From contig NZ_SWKN01000006.1 of assembly GCF_005871185.1 (NCBI RefSeq), positions 1,156,451-1,220,450 on the forward strand: 64,000 bases of DNA, given 5' to 3'. Positions 16,842 through 49,988 of this stretch are shown piece after piece; the stretch's first letter is position 1; each line of letters starts with the position of its first letter. A program made the translations under genes and the position numbers. The notes below the pieces were generated by a model. It worked only from the letters and a program-made list of their open reading frames with translations. It made no database searches and was not told the DNA's origin. The stretch comes from Limnobacter alexandrii. GTDB lineage: Bacteria; Pseudomonadota; Gammaproteobacteria; Burkholderiales; Burkholderiaceae_B.

Positions 16842-16917
16842 TGGTGGGTCGTGCGAGATTCGAACTCACGACCAAAGGATTAAAAGTCCTCTGCTCTACC
16901 AGCTGAGCTAACGACCC
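16842..16917 (-). tRNA. tRNA-Lys (TTT anticodon)
   Basis: Seventy-six bases including an encoded CCA fold into a standard cloverleaf: acceptor stem GGGTCGT / ACGACCC, D arm with AGCTCAGCTGGTAGAGC, anticodon loop CTTTTAA with anticodon TTT, and T arm GAGTTCGAATCTC. The anticodon reads lysine codons AAA and AAG. The gene is followed by an intrinsic terminator. No copy of its 3' end was noticed elsewhere in the window, so there is no direct sign of an integration event here. Confidence 0.96.
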
Positions 16918-22680: not shown

Positions 22681-22685
22681 AGCGC

Positions 22686-23175
22686 GGGTGACTTTTGATC
22701 TGAACTTGAAGGGTCACTGCTGTAGTTATTTGCCAGCTCGGCATGGGTTACTTGTGTCGCACTGAAAACCGCTTGATCCCTTTTTGACTTTATTCTTGCT
22801 CACCTCGCTCGGCAAAAGGGCGGGCCGAGTCTCGGTGTCGGCGTAACGCCGAACGCTGCGACTAAACTCAAACGGGGCGGTTTTCTTGAAGTGCGTCCCA
22901 AGCAATCCCACTGCCGAGTTGGCTTAAACCTCTCGTGCGCTGCCATTTGCAAGTTCAGCTCTAAGTCACCGCTCGGTTCAACGCCCAATCGGCGGCGGTG
23001 TTTCGATCGCCTCGCCTTCAAGAAAACCTGCCCGACCCGCTTTTTAGGAGGGTCGTTCTCGGGCATCGAAAGGCTCAGCAAGGGGAGTACAGGTTTTCAG
23101 GCGATAGATCGGAATCCCAGCCGATCGGGCGATTAAGAAGCTGCGAGAGATCGAAAATCGCGCCGAGTGGGCTGA
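22686..23175. repeat. Mosaic intergenic repeat, copy 1
   Basis: About 490 non-coding bases before the sulfate-binding-protein gene, made of modules that recur in copy 2 (28861-29356). Module B is 22686-22722, module A 22738-22764, module C 22762-22837, module D 22947-23034, and two tandem E units start at about 23099 and 23141. The last 39 bases of C (22799-22837) are the exact reverse complement of 29206-29244. D is 88 bases long and matches 29083-29170 at most positions with no net length change. The order here is B-A-C-D-E-E. A short palindrome (TCGGCGTAACGCCGA) follows C. No reading frame in it looks like a gene. Its function is unknown. Confidence 0.85.
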
Positions 23176-23272
23176 TCAAGAATCTGATAAGCAAAGAAGT
23201 TTTTCTTCGTTCACAGCGCAAAGCCCGATCCCTAAGATGTGTCCACATCAAGAACACATTGAAGGATTACAA

Positions 23273-24286
23273 ATGAATTTTGCCGCTCTGATTAAAAAAA
23301 CCTTGGGGCTGACTGCGGCCTTGGCGATCTCCTCCACCGCATGGGCCAACGTTGAATTGCTGAACGTGTCCTATGATCCAACCCGCGAGTTGTACCAGGA
23401 GTTCAACCCGGCATTTGCCAAATACTGGAAAGAAAAAACTGGTGAAACCGTAACTATCAAGCAAAGTCATGGCGGTGCCGGCAAGCAGGCCCGGGCTGTG
23501 ATTGATGGTTTGGAGGCGGATGTGGTCACGCTCGCCTTGGCCTATGACATTGACGCGATTGCCGAAAAAACAGGCAAGATCCCAGCCGACTGGCAAAAGA
23601 AGCTGTCTAACAATAGTTCACCCTACACTTCAACCATTGTATTTCTGGTTCGCAAAGGCAACCCCAAGAAAATCAAGGATTGGGATGATTTGGTCAAGCC
23701 AGGCATTCAAGTGATTACGCCCAACCCGAAAACCTCGGGCGGCGCACGTTGGAACTACTTGGCTGCTTGGGGCTATGCCTTGAAAAAGCCGGGCGGTAAT
23801 GAAATCAAAGCCAAAGATTTCGTGACGACACTCTACAAGAATGTGCCGGTGCTAGATTCCGGTGCTCGCGGGTCAACCAATACTTTCGTGCAAAGAAATA
23901 TTGGTGATGTGTTTATTTCCTGGGAAAACGAAGCGTTCCTGGCTATCAATGAATTAGGTAAAGACAAATTCGAAATTATTGTGCCATCGGTATCGATTTT
24001 GGCAGAGCCACCCGTTGCTCTCGTGAAAGGGAATGCCGACAGAAAAGGCACAACAGTGGTTGCGCAAGCCTACCTGGATTACCTCTACTCTCCCATTGGG
24101 CAACAAATAGCAGCGGCAAATTACTATCGCCCCAACAAGCCTGAACTGGTGGCCAACAAAGCCGACTTGAATCGCTTCCCCAAAGTGAAACTATTCACCA
24201 TCGACGAAGTGTTTGGTGGTTGGCAAAAAGCCCAGAAAACCCACTTTGAAGACGGTGGCGTGTTCGATCAAATCTTCAAGCGTTAA
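23273..24286 (+). CDS. sbp: Sulfate/thiosulfate ABC transporter substrate-binding protein
   Basis: A 337-residue periplasmic binding protein that delivers sulfate or thiosulfate to the CysTWA transporter. It has a signal peptide ([20 protein letters not shown], cut near AWA) and family motifs: [40 protein letters not shown] and the C-terminal AEPPVA region. The start at 23273 is preceded by AAGGA; an in-frame codon 36 bases earlier lacks this and would spoil the signal peptide. It is the first gene of a block running to cysB. Whether it prefers sulfate (Sbp) or thiosulfate (CysP) cannot be decided from sequence alone. Confidence 0.95.
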
Positions 24287-24304
24287 TTGTCGGGAGTATC
24301 GATT

Positions 24305-24976
24305 GTGCTTGCGCCCACTTGCATCACCGTACCCGGTTTGAATGGCAGTGGTCCAGACCACTGGCAAACCTGGGCCGAGAAGGAAATTCCAAATTGCCGA
24401 AGGGTGAGCGGGATTGACTTTGACAAACCAGTGATTGCAGCGTGGGCCGATGCCATTCGCAACAACATTCGCGATCAAGCGGGTAGCGTGATCTTGATTG
24501 CACACAGTTTTGGCTCTTTGGCCAGTGTGGTTGCGATTGCAGACAACGAAACCAAGGTGGCCGGGGTTGTTTTGGTGGCGCCTGCTTCTCCGCAACGATT
24601 TAGTGCGACAGGGTTGATCGGTCTTGAGCATGGCGTGTCAACAACATTACTCAGCGCAATTCCAGTCATACCTTTGGGTGTTCCCGGTATGCTAATTGCA
24701 AGTTCAGATGACCCTTGGATGAAGATGACGCACGCTCGATACTGGGCAGAAAACTGGGGTTTGCGTTTTTCGTGTTTGCGCAATGCGGGGCATATCAATA
24801 TGGAATCTGGCTTTGGCCCTTGGCCTGCTTTGCCAAACATTGTTTGCAAATTCCGTGAACAACTGCAGGCCATCCCGCTCGGCCAAATTCAGGCACAAAG
24901 CCAATCCAGCAAAAATCGATTCACGGCCTTGTCGAAGATTAGACTGTTAACACGCAATTCTATCGACCTTCTGTAG
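24305..24976 (+). CDS. RBBP9/YdeN-family serine hydrolase
   Basis: A protein of about 223 residues of the RBBP9/YdeN branch of alpha/beta hydrolases. The start region has VPGLNGSGPDHWQTW, the nucleophile serine is in LIAHSFGSLAS, the acid is probably in SSDDPW, and the histidine is in NAGHINMESGFGPWP; all are typical of the family. I chose the GTG at 24305, eight bases after GGGAG; a TTG 18 bases upstream overlaps no better signal. The last 35 residues are basic and less conserved. It lies between the binding-protein and permease genes of the sulfate operon, which is recurrent in some Burkholderiales as far as I recall, but no role in sulfate uptake is known to me. Confidence 0.82.
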   Translation: MLAPTCITVPGLNGSGPDHWQTWAEKEIPNCRRVSGIDFDKPVIAAWADAIRNNIRDQAGSVILIAHSFGSLASVVAIADNETKVAGVVLVAPASPQRFSATGLIGLEHGVSTTLLSAIPVIPLGVPGMLIASSDDPWMKMTHARYWAENWGLRFSCLRNAGHINMESGFGPWPALPNIVCKFREQLQAIPLGQIQAQSQSSKNRFTALSKIRLLTRNSIDLL

Positions 24977-25093
24977 CCAGACATTGATCATAAGTTTTTC
25001 TTATATCGATCCAATTTTTTAATCGTTCAGTATCTAAAGCCTCTCCAATAGACTGCTTGCTTCGTATTCAAATCGAACTTGCTAAGGTTTATC

Positions 25094-25933
25094 GTGGCTT
25101 CGTCTTCTTCAACCAAACGTGTGCTCCCGGGGTTTCATCTCACCCTGGGTTATGCCATCGTCTATCTTTCTTTGCTCATCCTGATTCCGCTGTCTGCCGT
25201 ATTCATCAAGACCTTTGAGATGAGCTTCGCGGACTTTTGGGCTACCGTGAGCGACCCCCGCGTGGTGGCCACTTACCGTGTTTCATTTGGAATCTCCCTA
25301 TTGGCAGCCAGCATCAATGCCGTGTTTGGTTTGTTGTTGGCCTGTATTCTGGTTCGCTACACCTTCCCTGGTCGAAAAATTGTGGATGCCTTGGTGGACC
25401 TTCCATTTGCCCTTCCTACGGCGGTGGCCGGTATTGCCCTTACCGCCCTGTATGCCGGCAATGGATGGGTGGGCCAATACCTGGAGCCGTTGGGAATTAA
25501 AGTGGCTTTTGCACCCGCCGGCATTTTGGTGGCTTTGGTATTTATCGGTTTGCCTTTTGTGGTGCGCACTGTTCAGCCAGTGTTGGAGGACATGGAAAGT
25601 GAATTGGAAGAGGCCGCAAGCAGCCTGGGTGCCAACCGTTGGCAAACCTTTTTTCATGTCATTTTACCCATCGTATTCCCAGCTCTGTTGACTGGCTTTG
25701 CCTTGGCCTTTGCAAGGGCGGTGGGTGAATACGGTTCAGTCATTTTTATTGCGGGCAATATTCCTTACGTGTCTGAGATTACCCCCTTGATGATCATCAC
25801 CAAGCTCGAGCAATACGACTACACCGGTGCCACAGCAATTGCTTCAGTCATGTTGATCATTTCATTTATCTTATTGCTGGCCATCAATGGCCTGCAAGCC
25901 TGGACTGCCAAACGAACAGGGAGAACTCAATAA
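25094..25933 (+). CDS. cysT: Sulfate ABC transporter permease CysT
   Basis: A 279-residue inner-membrane permease (CysT, also called CysU). It has six predicted helices and the EAA loop [19 protein letters not shown] near residue 180, which contacts the ATPase. Other family features are [13 protein letters not shown] and [14 protein letters not shown]. The start is taken as GTG at 25094 because AAGG lies six bases before it; a TTG 15 bases upstream is the alternative. A 117-base gap separates it from the hydrolase gene, so a second promoter is possible. It ends in TAATG, sharing one base with the start of cysW. Confidence 0.95.
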
Positions 25934-26814
25934 TGTCGGGCGCTGTTGCATTGCATATTCACACCTCGCGCGCAGAAAAGCTGCAAAGCTCGTCCGCAAC
26001 GCGGGAAACGCAATGGGTCAAGTGGGCTCTGATTCTCACCGGAGTGGCCTTCTTTGGTTTCTTTTTGTTGCTGCCTTTGTTCGCTGTATTCGTGGAAGCA
26101 TTCCGCCAGGGAGTGTGGGTGTATTGGGAATCCTTGAAGGAACCCGATGCGGTCTACGCCTTGAAACTGACCTTGTTGGCTGCAGCAATTGCAGTGCCGC
26201 TGAATCTGGTGTTTGGTGTGGCCGCAGCCTGGGCGATTGCCAAGTTTGAGTTTCGAGGCAAGCAAGTTCTGATTACCTTAATTGACTTGCCATTTTCTGT
26301 GAGCCCTGTAATAGCGGGCCTGGTGTATGTGTTGTTGTTTGGCGCGCAGGGCTGGTTTGCACCTCTGTTGGCTGAGTACGAAATTCGTATTATTTTTGCG
26401 GTGCCTGGCATTGTGTTGGCCACGGTGTTTGTCACCGTACCTTTCATCGTTCGCGAGCTGATTCCGTTGATGGAAGCACAGGGCAAAGAGGAAGAAGAGG
26501 CCGCCGTGGTGTTGGGTGCGCGGGGTTGGCAAACTTTCTGGCATGTCACTTTGCCGAACATCAAGTGGGGTTTGTTGTATGGCGTTATTTTGTGTAATGC
26601 CCGCGCCATGGGCGAGTTTGGTGCGGTGTCGGTGGTGTCGGGCCACATTCGCGGTGAAACCAACACGCTGCCCTTGCATGTCGAAATTCTATACAACGAA
26701 TACCAGTTCTCAGCAGCGTTTGCAGTCGCTTCTATTCTCGCGTTTTTAGCCCTGATTACTTTGGGTATTAAAACCTGGGTTGAGCATCAAGTCGCCAAAC
26801 AGGGTGTGCACTAA
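25933..26814 (+). CDS. cysW: Sulfate ABC transporter permease CysW
   Basis: A 293-residue permease, partner of CysT. After a polar N-terminal stretch of about 35 residues it has six helices, the [18 protein letters not shown] region typical of CysW, and the EAA loop [21 protein letters not shown] further hallmark is [19 protein letters not shown]. Together with CysT it forms the membrane channel for sulfate. Its start overlaps the cysT stop (TAATG), and cysA follows after 12 bases with GAAGGA as ribosome site. Confidence 0.96.
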
Positions 26815-26826
26815 GAAGGAATTATC

Positions 26827-27921
26827 ATGAGCATTCAAGTCAAAAACATTCACAAGCAGTTTGGCAATTTCACCGCCCTGAACAATGTCAGCCTGAATTT
26901 CAACAGCGGTGAGTTGGTCGCTTTACTGGGTCCATCGGGCTGCGGTAAAACAACTTTGCTGCGCATCATCGCAGGCCTGGAGCAGGCCGACAGCGGCACT
27001 GTGATTCTGGATGGAGAAGACACCTCTGATACGCATGTACGCGATCGAAATGTGGGTTTTGTGTTTCAGCATTACGCGCTGTTCAAGCACATGACTGTGT
27101 TCGACAATGTGGCCTTTGGCATGCGCATGAAGCCACGCAGTGAGCGGCCCAGCAAAGCAGAAATTGCAGACAAAGTGCACAGCCTGCTGAAGTTGGTCCA
27201 GCTGGATTGGTTGGCGGATCGTTTCCCTTCCCAGTTAAGCGGTGGACAACGCCAGCGCATTGCCTTGGCGCGCGCGTTGGCTGTAGAGCCCAAAGTGCTG
27301 CTGTTGGACGAACCGTTTGGTGCCCTGGATGCCAAGGTGCGCAAGGAGTTGCGTCGATGGTTGCGCCGCCTGCATGATGAACTGCACATCACGTCGATTT
27401 TTGTGACACACGATCAGGAAGAGGCCTTGGAAGTAGCCGACCGGGTTGTCTTGATGAACCAGGGCAATGTAGAGCAAATTGGTACCCCCGAAGAAGTTTA
27501 CCAATACCCGGCTACTCCTTTTGTGTACGGGTTTTTGGGCTCGGTCAATTTGTTCAAGGCACGTCACTTGGGCGATGGTCTTCAGGTTGGCGAGTCGAAC
27601 CTGGCGCATTCCGGTACAGTGTTGAACAGATCGGGCGAGGCAGTGCAGGGTACCGATGTGCTGGCGTTTGCGCGCCCGCATGAAATTGAAATTCACACAG
27701 AGCCTGATTTCTCGTTGGGCGTGCCTGCCAAAGTGGTGCGTGCGTTGCGCTTTGGTTTAAACACACGGATTGAACTGGATTCGGTTGATTTGCAGCCTGC
27801 CCAGCACTTTGATGTTGAAATCAGCGCAGAGCGCGCAGTGCAACTGAACTTGCAGGAAGGCCAGTTGGTTCGGCTTTCAGCCAAAGCTTTGAAGGTATTC
27901 GACTTGGTAGGTGTCGCATGA
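26827..27921 (+). CDS. cysA: Sulfate ABC transporter ATP-binding protein CysA
   Basis: A 364-residue ABC ATPase that drives sulfate import. Walker A is GPSGCGKTT at about 35-43, the Q-loop is in FVFQHYALF, the signature is LSGGQRQR, Walker B is VLLLDEP and the switch histidine is in FVTHDQEEA. The C-terminal 120 residues form a regulatory TOBE-like domain (FARPHEIEI). Its last codons overlap the start of the CysB-type regulator by four bases, so the regulator is cotranslated with the transporter it is expected to control. Confidence 0.97.
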
Positions 27922-28847
27922 ATTTTCAGCAGTTGCGTATTATTCGCGAAACGGTTCGTCAGGGATACAACCTGACCGAAGTGGCCAACAGTTTGTACAC
28001 CTCGCAACCCGGGGTTTCGAAACACATTCGCGATCTTGAAGAAGAGTTGGGTGTGGAATTGTTCATTCGCAAAGGCAAACGCCTGATGGGTTTGACTGAC
28101 CCTGGCAAGGAGTTGCTGGTGCTGGTTGAACGCATGTTGCTGGACGCCAAAAACATCAAGAACCTGGCTGAGCAATACAGCAGCCGCGACGTGGGACAGC
28201 TGACGGTTGTTACCACGCACACGCAGGCCCGCTATTCATTGCCCACGGTGGTGAATGAGTTTAAAAAGATTTTCCCGAAAGTTCACTTGCGCATGCATCA
28301 GGGAAGCCCCAAGGAAATTACGCAGATGCTGCTGGACGGCCAGGCCGACATTGGTATTGCGACGGAGGTGCTCGGTAACGTCGAGGATCTTGTTTCGTTT
28401 CCTTACTACCAGTGGAAGCATCAGGTGGTGGTGCAGCAAGGCCACCCTTTGTTGAAACTGGCCGAGCCTACTTTGCAGGATGTGGCTGAATACCCGATCG
28501 TGACTTATCAAGAGGGTTTCACCGGACGAATCAAGATTGACGAAACTTTCCGCAAACTGGGTTTAACACTGGATGTGGCCATTTCCGCGCTGGATGCGGA
28601 TGTCATTAAAACCTATGTGGAACTGGGCCTTGGTGTGGGCATTATTGCCAGCATGGCCTACAACCCGGTGAAGGACACAGGCCTGGCGGTGCTTGATATT
28701 GAATCGGATTTGCCAATGAACACTACCAGCATTGCGATTCGCAAAGGGCATTATTTGCGCTCGTTTGCATACAAGTTCATCGAGCTGTGTAATGGGGATT
28801 TGACCGAAGCCAGGTTGCTGGCGGCGTTGAATGATTCATTGGCTTAG
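27918..28847 (+). CDS. cysB: CysB-type LysR transcription regulator
   Basis: A 309-residue LysR family regulator of the CysB/Cbl group. Residues 1-60 form the winged helix-turn-helix ([15 protein letters not shown], then [20 protein letters not shown]), and the family's [13 protein letters not shown] and [11 protein letters not shown] segments mark the effector-binding domain. CysB-type proteins bind N-acetylserine or sulfate-related signals and switch on sulfate uptake and assimilation genes. It overlaps cysA by four bases. In many enterobacteria cysB is unlinked, so this arrangement, regulator at the operon end, is a feature of betaproteobacteria. The second mosaic repeat starts 14 bases after its stop. 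Confidence 0.95.
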
Positions 28848-28860
28848 GGGACAAGGTAAC

Positions 28861-29356
28861 TCGGCGTGGGTTACTTGTGTCGTACTGGCCAGGTGACTTG
28901 GGAGCTAAACTTGAAGGGTCACCGCTGCCCGAAAACTTGGCATATCGTCTTGTCTGCTTGAGCCTGCACTAAGCCAAGCCCTCCGAAAGTAACGGTCGGG
29001 TCTTGGCTTTCGCGCCAAGGCGCGATCGCTAGTCTCTGCGCACCAAGCCGGCAAGTTTTCTGACTGGTCATCGTGCGACCCATTGCAAGTTCAGCTCCGA
29101 GTCACCACTGGCTCAACAGCCCAATCGGCGGCGGAGTTTCGATCGCCTCGCCTTCAAGAAAACCTGCCCGTTTGAATTCATCCGCCACGGTCGGCCATGG
29201 GCCGGCACCGAGACTCGGCCCGCCCTTTTGCCGAGCGAGGTGAGTCAGGGTGAATCTCAAAAAGGGAAAACCAGGTTTTCAGGCGAGAGATCGGAACCCA
29301 AGCTGATTGGGCTGTTAACCGGCAGGCGAGAGATCGGAACCCAAGCTGGTTGGGCT
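28861..29356. repeat. Mosaic intergenic repeat, copy 2
   Basis: About 495 non-coding bases between cysB and the flavin reductase gene, sharing modules with copy 1. Module A is 28861-28887 (two mismatches to copy 1), B 28891-28927, D 29083-29170, C 29206-29282 in inverted orientation, and E units start at about 29281 and 29324. The order is A-B-D-C(inverted)-E-E, compared with B-A-C-D-E-E in copy 1. A perfect palindrome TCGCGCC-AA-GGCGCGA lies at 29010-29025. Each E unit contains a CCCAA...TTGGG stem. No gene-like frame is present. The two copies bracket the whole sulfate block. Function and origin are unknown. Confidence 0.85.
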
Positions 29357-29390
29357 AAATAAACCAGCTGTCGAGCAAGCAAGAATTTGA

Positions 29391-29915
29391 TCAGTTCCGG
29401 AAGTACTTCCTCGACCGATACACCAGCGCCTCGCCTTCGCGATAATCGCAGCGCAACACCTCGCCCACCATGATGAAATGATCACCTTCATCGTAGCGGC
29501 TGCGCACTTTGCATTCAAAATGCGCCAAGGCGTGGGGAATCAAAGGCGCGCCACCCAAGCCCTCAATCACCTCCAGGCCAGCAAACCGATCGCCTTTGAA
29601 GGTTGAAAAGTGATGTGACAATTCTTCCTGATCGGCAGACAACACACTCACGCCATAATGCGTGGCGGCTGCAAATGCATCGTGACTGCTGGCTTTCTTC
29701 GACAAGCTCCACAACACCAAAGGCGGGTGTAGCGAGACCGAGTTAAATGAATTGGCCGTCACTCCCACGTATTTGCCCTCGGCATTTTTGGTGGTGATGA
29801 TGGTGATGCCAGTGGCAAACTGGGCCAGCGCTTGCCGAAACATGTGCGCGTCCAGTTCGGCGTCGCCTTCGCGTTTCTCGGCGCGAATGAATTCGGGTTT
29901 GGCAGGTTGTTGCAT
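29391..29915 (-). CDS. Flavin reductase family protein (FMN-binding split barrel)
   Basis: A 174-residue protein of the flavin reductase-like family (HpaC/flavoredoxin type). The pattern FRQALAQFATGITIITT, then GVTANSFNSVSLHPPLVLWSL, is the FMN-binding core; further on GDRFAGLEV and HALAHFECKV are typical. Such enzymes use NAD(P)H to make reduced flavin for a partner monooxygenase, though some bind FMN for other ends. No monooxygenase gene lies nearby. The gene faces tgt head-to-head across about 140 bases. The partner is unknown; the family call is firm. Confidence 0.9.
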   Translation of the reverse strand: MQQPAKPEFIRAEKREGDAELDAHMFRQALAQFATGITIITTKNAEGKYVGVTANSFNSVSLHPPLVLWSLSKKASSHDAFAAATHYGVSVLSADQEELSHHFSTFKGDRFAGLEVIEGLGGAPLIPHALAHFECKVRSRYDEGDHFIMVGEVLRCDYREGEALVYRSRKYFRN

Positions 29916-49856: not shown

Positions 49857-49952
49857 GGCGGGCCTCCCCGCATGGCGTAGCGGCCAACCTGGTCAGGTCC
49901 GGAAGGAAGCAGCCACAACCGTGAAGTCAGTGCCGGGGTTCTGGCTCGCCTC
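49857..49952 (+). ncRNA. ffs: 4.5S RNA of signal recognition particle
   Basis: About 96 bases with the invariant SRP apical hairpin GGTCAGGTCCGGAAGGAAGC and AGCC at its foot. Ends GGCGGGCC and GGCTCGCC pair to close the long hairpin, which sets the limits to within a few bases. The RNA binds Ffh and targets membrane proteins. Its place just before dnaX is common in Proteobacteria. Confidence 0.93.
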
Positions 49953-49988
49953 TTAATTTGTTGGACCCAACTGCTGGACCCAATCTGA

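What the first reader, a model, noticed from the sequence alone, without database searches (positions are those of the whole stretch)
22686..29356. Two mosaic non-coding repeats bracket the sulfate uptake block
Seen: about 490 bases before sbp and about 495 bases after cysB share five modules. Order is B-A-C-D-E-E at 22.7-23.2 kb and A-B-D-C(inverted)-E-E at 28.9-29.4 kb. Part of C (22799-22837) is the exact reverse complement of 29206-29244, and D (88 bases) is conserved with no length change. Shuffling plus inversion of modules, with conservation inside modules, is not what a simple duplication gives. Known REP or BOX elements are shorter; this could be an undescribed modular repeat family, a remnant of a mobile unit that carried the cys block, or a structured RNA family. 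Inference: recombination between the copies could excise or invert the 6 kb cys segment.
Basis: seen in the sequence. Interest (0 to 1): 0.72.

Follow-up and report, generated by a model that had tools for sequence, protein, structure and literature searches.

The report
Paired hairpin repeats in Limnobacter
The two odd repeats belong to a family of paired DNA hairpins that the bacterium Limnobacter carries at gene ends around its chromosome, so they are real and unusual but have nothing special to do with sulfate uptake.

Summary
In detail: both copies, with shuffled modules and an exact 39-nt inverted match, are there. They are two of at least 33 sites in this Limnobacter genome. By covariance model the family is in 13 of 16 genomes of the genus and 0 of 198 others of an order sample. 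The modules are arms and loops of a ~131-nt palindrome that can fold as a three-way junction. Units pair head-to-head at gene 3' ends: 19 of 33 own sites lie between convergent genes against 33 of 196 background pairs. Sites are shared between species (21 of 21 fetched G008 loci, 17 of 19 G010), but units resemble same-genome paralogs (21 of 22, 16 of 19), so exchange between copies explains the mosaic. Two-sided changes keep pairing, yet G-T is not commoner than A-C, which argues for DNA-level pairing. Class II orientation follows the replichore in 20 of 21 G008 units, more weakly elsewhere. The cys block is not their cargo. Best reading: a BIME-like DNA boundary family; function is inferred, not shown.

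The parts
22683..23178 (+). element 1: unit I forward + short unit II reverse, between the EamA transporter gene (stop 22680) and sbp
22752..22901 (+). unit of class I (arms GAAAACCGC / GCGGTTTTC), can fold as a three-way junction; holds module C
   Evidence: 123.2 bits; 134.3 bits with model R2
23006..23110 (-). short unit of class II (arm CAGGTTTTCTTGAAG); its arm is part of module D
   Evidence: 59.2 bits; 26.6 bits with R2
23098..23173 (+). two tail repeats E
28858..29382 (+). element 2: unit III forward + unit II reverse, between convergent cysB (stop 28847) and flavin reductase (ORF 29391-29915, minus strand)
28920..29075 (+). unit of class III (arms GAAAACTTG / CAAGTTTTC), diverged
   Evidence: 27.7 bits; 31.6 bits with R2
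29142..29292 (-). full unit of class II (arms GAAAACCTG / CAGGTTTTC); holds part of module D and inverted C
   Evidence: 167 bits; 101.7 bits with R2
29280..29356 (+). two tail repeats E
22687..22722 (+). outer arm GGTGAC...GGGTCAC, complementary to the start of module D (about 22947-22970) around unit I
   Evidence: by eye; fold

Best explanation
A family of interspersed, non-coding palindromic DNA elements found so far only in Limnobacter. Each unit is a ~131-nt (or ~101-nt) imperfect palindrome that can fold as a three-way junction. Units, usually of different arm classes (I or III with II), mostly lie head-to-head about 65-275 nt apart and occupy the space between gene 3' ends, most often of convergent genes (shown). 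Sites are old and inherited vertically (shown for three genomes). Pairing is maintained at the level of DNA rather than of one RNA strand (inferred from G-T versus A-C counts). The likeliest function is a DNA boundary at the ends of transcription units, as proposed for REP/BIME repeats: a hairpin or cruciform that absorbs or marks supercoiling, or blocks read-through from both sides (inferred, not tested).
For: Copies. Genus limit: 12 of 30 genomes by DNA, all 12 in the genus; 13 of 16 in the genus by model; 0 of 198 others of the order sample; 68 of 68 pattern stretches from records named Limnobacter or from uncultured bins. Pairing: class II 95.0% of cells paired against 88.7% shuffled, 84 two-sided changes against 25.5; class I 84.9% against 77.5%, 110 against 42.2. 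G-T against A-C: 8 against 17 and 30 against 49. Placement: 19 of 33 own, 10 of 21 G008, 16 of 21 G010 convergent against 33 of 196; median 14 nt from own element edges to neighbouring stop codons (n=51) against 76 nt to start codons (n=15). Orthology and same-genome similarity. In 10 orthologous pairs linkers have 0.25-0.62 identity (shuffled 0.27-0.50), units 0.57-0.83 (shuffled 0.48-0.51).
Against: No transcription, supercoiling or protein-binding data. Template-switch repair or conversion between arms could keep the palindromes without any function. Replichore polarity is not explained by a symmetric boundary. 3 of 16 genomes of the genus show no unit (G002, G011, G015; G002 85% and G011 65% complete), so the family is dispensable or lost there. 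The measure 'further pair types' did not exceed shuffles for class I (296 of 500), and for class I a slide by -1 column also gives 48 two-sided cells. The structures were hand-drawn on single rows, which favours them. No control of G-T against A-C on a known RNA was run.
Confidence: 0.5

Rival explanations
1. Fossil non-autonomous mobile elements (MITE-like) whose ancestor inserted behind genes, perhaps by a strand-biased route coupled to replication. They now stay in place without function, and their palindromes persist by arm-to-arm repair and exchange between copies.
For: Inverted units, genus limit, different copy numbers between species (1 to 86 units in the 13 genomes with any), replichore polarity, same-genome similarity.
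Against: Sites shared by species whose flanking DNA is 73-89% identical; no Y1/RAYT transposase in the own genome (other transposase families and other genomes not searched); no target duplication or empty site demonstrated here.
Confidence: 0.3
2. 3'-UTR RNA elements or large bidirectional intrinsic terminators: each convergent gene reads a forward unit first, and the A-tract / T-tract arms (AAAACC...GGTTTT) end transcription.
For: Stop-codon proximity, head-to-head arrangement, near absence between divergent genes (1 of 33 own sites, 1 of 4 further own units, 0 of 21 G008, 0 of 21 G010).
Against: No G-T excess over A-C; three of the four own single units between tandem genes are reversed relative to the upstream gene (L026, L031, L037 against L155); no Rfam match at the elements. 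The terminator scan found none, but it only allows loops of 3-8 nt and so cannot see a hairpin of this size.
Confidence: 0.15
3. Two survivors of one duplication around the cys block.
For: They bracket a 6 kb block in this genome.
Against: At least 33 sites genome-wide; bracketing not kept in G007 and G003.
Confidence: 0.01

Closest known systems
REP / BIME repeats (PMC3733652 and PMC1525189, passages seen)
   Same: Palindromic intergenic units, pairs in opposite orientation, mostly between convergent or unidirectional genes, close to stop codons
   Different: REPs are 20-40 bp, tagged GTAG or CGTC, often with RAYT transposases, and PMC3733652 takes frequent GT pairing as support for an RNA role; here units are 101-131 nt, GTAG is near an end in 1 of 138 units, there is no G-T excess, and the own genome has no Y1 transposase match
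ERIC (127 bp; passages seen in PMC2267715)
   Same: Similar unit length, stem-loop, intergenic
   Different: A single long stem-loop in the passage seen; the window's class II unit has no match in the E. coli genome collection; head-to-head pairing and arm classes are not mentioned in the passages seen
BRE, beta-proteobacterial repeat element (PMC3110155, section 14 read)
   Same: Repeats mostly in intergenic regions of Betaproteobacteria, up to 29 copies
   Different: ~90 bp, tandem, spread over several genera, stated not to be co-orientated with the replication fork, context only moderately conserved
MITEs (PMC10969869, search listing with start of abstract only)
   Same: Short, non-coding, inverted repeats (recalled)
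   Different: No target duplication or transposase shown here; sites shared across species

Membership tests
REP/BIME | 20-40 bp palindromic unit | tested here: not met
   units 86, 101 or about 130-133 nt
REP/BIME | GTAG or CGTC tag at one end | tested here: not met
   GTAG near an end in 1 of 138 units, CTAC 0, CGTC 10, GACG 9 (crude string check)
REP/BIME | RAYT (Y1) transposase in the genome | tested here: not met
   PF01797: 0 matches in the own genome; control rings in 5 of 14 genomes; relatives not searched
REP/BIME | opposite-orientation pairs at gene 3' ends | tested here: met
   25 of 33 own sites are '+-' pairs, 8 single units
REP/BIME | bound and cut by DNA gyrase | not testable with these tools
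   needs ChIP or cleavage mapping
ERIC | sequence homology to ERIC of E. coli | tested here: not met
   window 29142-29292 has no match in the E. coli collection (20,395 records) at E 0.1
BRE | presence across Betaproteobacteria genera | tested here: not met
   0 of 198 non-genus genomes of the order sample match model R1 (stricter filters)
BRE | sequence identity to BRE | not tested
   the section read gives no sequence
MITE | terminal inverted repeats with target-site duplication | not tested
   element ends not defined to the base; no empty site pinned down
structured RNA family | covariation with tolerance of G-U over A-C | tested here: not met
   G-T 8 against A-C 17 of 1360 cells; 30 against 49 of 1298; no control on a known RNA
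Rfam families | score above gathering cut-off | tested here: not met
   window: only a tRNA and SRP RNA elsewhere; copy 1 with E up to 10: none; four relatives' or own loci: none over cut-off

The most novel reading that the evidence does not exclude
A chromosome-wide set of DNA hairpin pairs whose unit classes are oriented by replichore, and whose inter-unit linker serves as a docking place for small toxin-immunity-like gene pairs exchanged through recombination in the hairpins: a structural analogue of an integron array built from convergent-gene ends.
Probability: 0.1. Interest if true: 0.8.

Novelty: new variant of a known kind. Interest (0 to 1): 0.48.

Why it matters
It adds a large, class-structured, head-to-head palindrome family to the REP/ERIC kind of bacterial repeats. 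Its sites are shared across species while its sequences evolve in concert, and in at least one complete genome its orientation follows the replication fork. That makes a long-standing question, whether such repeats work as DNA or as RNA and why they sit at the ends of convergent genes, testable in an environmental genus.

Tried and rejected
Cys block as cargo: rejected. RAYT/REP origin: no Y1 transposase in the own genome. Known RNA family: none at the elements (the six E<=5 matches are below cut-off and outside the units). Phage, plasmid or viral source: no BLAST match (plasmids; phages). Exact short-pattern matches in viral contigs (2 and 9 stretches) hold no unit by R1 or R2, so they are taken as chance. 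The 3.9-4.0 kb '+ -' pairs in G010 and G009 looked like cargo but hold ordinary genes between single units. RNAalifold on class I found 21 pairs, only part of the stems; hand-drawn structures were used instead.

Choices: A3 holds 29 of the 45 class II candidates and A2 28 of 32 class I, chosen by hand for diversity; two of the 45 were the same unit listed in the wrong orientation. A1 had one row in the wrong orientation (L121) and was replaced by A3. Gene context uses a crude ORF caller (110 aa minimum), not an annotation; the 'divergent' L024 may be a miscall. Class assignment for polarity is by arm sequence only, and of the own genome only contig 1 was tested. Wide gaps between units were looked for by script in G000 and G010 and by eye in the hit lists of G007, G009, G001, G003, G006 and G012; full lists of G005, G008 and G013 were not examined. 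A note I wrote during the work gave '12 of 15' for the genus by DNA; the correct figure is 12 of 16 with the own genome.
Full report
OBSERVATION. Both copies are as described: the 88-nt block at 89%, two E repeats in each, and a 127-nt inverted match whose 39-nt core is an exact reverse complement. Folded as single strands, copy 1 (+), copy 2 (+) and copy 2 (-) each beat all of their 100 dinucleotide shuffles.

A GENOME-WIDE FAMILY. The first copy gives 95 BLAST pieces in the own genome, the second 59. Comparison of the 32 stretches fetched around them gives 33 sites, about 200-660 nt each. A covariance model built later from class II units (R1) counts 50 units at E<=1e-5 in the own genome, among them four not in the first list (L154 two, L155, L156). 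By DNA, 12 of 30 searched genomes match, all 12 of the same genus, that is 12 of its 16 with the own one. By model, 13 of 16 match: G004 has 3 units, G014 one weak one, and G002, G011 and G015 none. In a 200-genome sample of the order only G000 and G004, both of the genus, match (stricter filters). A 23-nt pattern scan of one genome each for 84,980 species gave 68 stretches, all from records named Limnobacter or from uncultured bins; contig lengths equal those of handles G001, G003, G005, G006, G007 and G012.

ANATOMY. The modules are pieces of one palindromic unit of very constant length: mostly 130-133 nt, with 101-nt and 86-nt short forms. It has paired arms GAAAACC...GGTTTTC, a loop that begins CAAAA, a TTGA bulge on the 3' arm, and two inner hairpins that make a three-way junction. 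Arm classes: I (GAAAACCGC), II (GAAAACCTG) and III (GAAAACTTG). The window holds four units by both models: I + short II in copy 1, III + II in copy 2. Model hits with a gap under 400 nt are all head-to-head: 13 of 13 in G000 and 25 of 25 paired by the script in G010. With weaker partners included, 25 of 33 own sites are '+-' pairs and 8 are single units.

PAIRING IS KEPT, BUT NOT RNA-LIKE. Class II (29 of 45 candidates aligned): 95.0% of cells pair against 88.7% after shuffling, and 84 cells have two-sided changes against 25.5. Class I (28 of 32): 84.9% against 77.5%, and 110 against 42.2; further pair types did not exceed shuffles there (296 of 500), and a slide by -1 still gave 48 two-sided cells. 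If one RNA strand were selected, G-U should be tolerated more than A-C. Observed G-T against A-C is 8 against 17 of 1360 cells, and 30 against 49 of 1298. PMC3733652 takes frequent GT pairing in REP stems as support for an RNA role (passages); here there is no such excess. I ran no control on a known RNA. Pairing thus appears to be kept in DNA, by selection or by template-switch repair; these data do not separate the two. No Rfam family matches at the elements.

PLACEMENT. With a crude ORF caller, sites lie between convergent genes in 19 of 33 (own), 10 of 21 (G008) and 16 of 21 (G010), against 33 of 196 adjacent ORF pairs in 240 kb of G008 (Fisher p 2e-6, 0.002, 4e-8). Divergent: 1 of 75 against 31 of 196. 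Of the four extra own units, 2 are convergent, 1 tandem, 1 divergent. In the own genome the median distance from element edge to a neighbouring stop codon is 14 nt (n=51), to a start codon 76 nt (n=15).

OLD SITES, YOUNG SEQUENCES. Flanking DNA shows that 21 of 21 fetched G008 loci (22 sites) and 17 of 19 fetched G010 loci are orthologous to own sites. The cysB-flavin reductase junction carries an element in G000, G003, G005, G007, G008, G009 and G010, with differing unit content. Yet a class II unit's nearest relative is a same-genome paralog in 21 of 22 (G000) and 16 of 19 (G010) cases, and nine ortholog pairs (mean 0.81) are hardly closer than any two units of the two genomes (0.785). In ten ortholog pairs the linker between units has 0.25-0.62 identity (shuffled 0.27-0.50), the units 0.57-0.83 (shuffled 0.48-0.51). 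At two sites the element is reversed relative to its flanks between species (own L027 against G010 L113; L046 against L122). Exchange between copies is the simplest source of the mosaic.

REPLICHORE POLARITY. In G008 dnaA lies at 1.1 kb; 12-kb samples have positive GC skew to 1.50 Mb and mostly negative from 1.65 Mb (one sample at 1.98 Mb is +0.009). Class II units follow the replichore in 20 of 21 (p 2e-5). On own contig 1, 18 of 22 (p 0.004). In G010 skew changes sign between 1.63 and 1.74 Mb (one earlier sample, at 0.62 Mb, is -0.009), and with a cut at 1.768 Mb the result depends on the set: 13 of 19 fetched units (p 0.17), 18 of 25 DNA hits (p 0.04), 32 of 44 strong model hits (p 0.004). 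The sites are orthologous, so the genomes are not independent tests. The effect is strong in G008, weaker in G010, and unexplained.

THE CYS BLOCK. sbp, cysTWA, cysB and the flavin reductase keep their order in G003, G005, G007 and G014 (in G010 sbp was not found in the 12 kb fetched). Model R1 finds no unit in the 18 kb of G014, and only the cysB-side pair in the 12 kb of G007; in G003 the other unit sits just behind the EamA transporter gene. The bracketing is incidental.

GENES BETWEEN UNITS. In five cases at three sites, head-to-head units lie 1.06-1.5 kb apart: G010 L131, G007 L153 and G001 L237 (one site, judged by neighbouring ORFs), G010 L128, and G004 L164. They enclose an NlpC/P60 protein (PF00877, E 4e-16 in L131 and 2e-16 in L153) with a lipoprotein-like one, a Peptidase_C92 protein (1e-7) with a signal-peptide-like one, and a weakly M15-like one (0.17, below cut-off) with a small signal-peptide-like ORF. 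In L237 I saw an ORF like the lipoprotein but no intact hydrolase ORF (by eye). The own sites orthologous to L131 and L128 have linkers of 109 and 150 nt. These look like antibacterial effector-immunity pairs; that reading is recalled knowledge, and signal peptides were judged by eye. Three sites are too few to claim a cassette system.

LITERATURE. None of the papers listed by the searches is, by title or start of abstract, about such a family in Limnobacter; the lists were capped and only open-licence papers are held. REP/BIME is the nearest functional analogue (passages), but its unit size, tag and transposase tests are not met. BRE (PMC3110155, section 14) differs in size, tandem arrangement, range and lack of co-orientation with replication.

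VERDICT. A real repeat family of the REP/ERIC kind, apparently undescribed and limited to one genus in what I searched, with unusual features. Likely a DNA-level boundary element at gene ends (inferred), with a domesticated or fossil mobile origin as the main rival.

Noticed in passing
L131 2500-3725 (G010), L153 2158-3376 (G007), L237 2521-3589 (G001): NlpC/P60 protein plus lipoprotein-like gene between two inverted units at one site in G010 and G007; the G001 copy seems degraded; the orthologous own site (L028) is empty.
   Followed up: partly
L128 985-2496 (G010): Peptidase_C92 protein plus signal-peptide-like protein between two inverted units; orthologous own site L034 is empty.
   Followed up: partly
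L164 2017-3072 (G004): Diverged unit pair around a weakly M15-like ORF, in a species with only three detectable units.
   Followed up: partly
L154 2272-6746 (own genome C1 360.8-365.2 kb): Two similar-scoring single units (81.8 and 81.7 bits) in outward orientation with three long ORFs between them.
   Followed up: no
L027 against L113; L046 against L122: Whole element reversed relative to the same flanking genes in two species.
   Followed up: partly
window 16845-16917 and 49857-49953: A tRNA gene and a small SRP RNA gene (Rfam).
   Followed up: no
L160 2889-4406 (G010) and L238 2753-4039 (G006): A transporter gene (MFS by Pfam in L160; L238 similar by eye) enclosed by a unit pair and a further unit.
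   Followed up: partly
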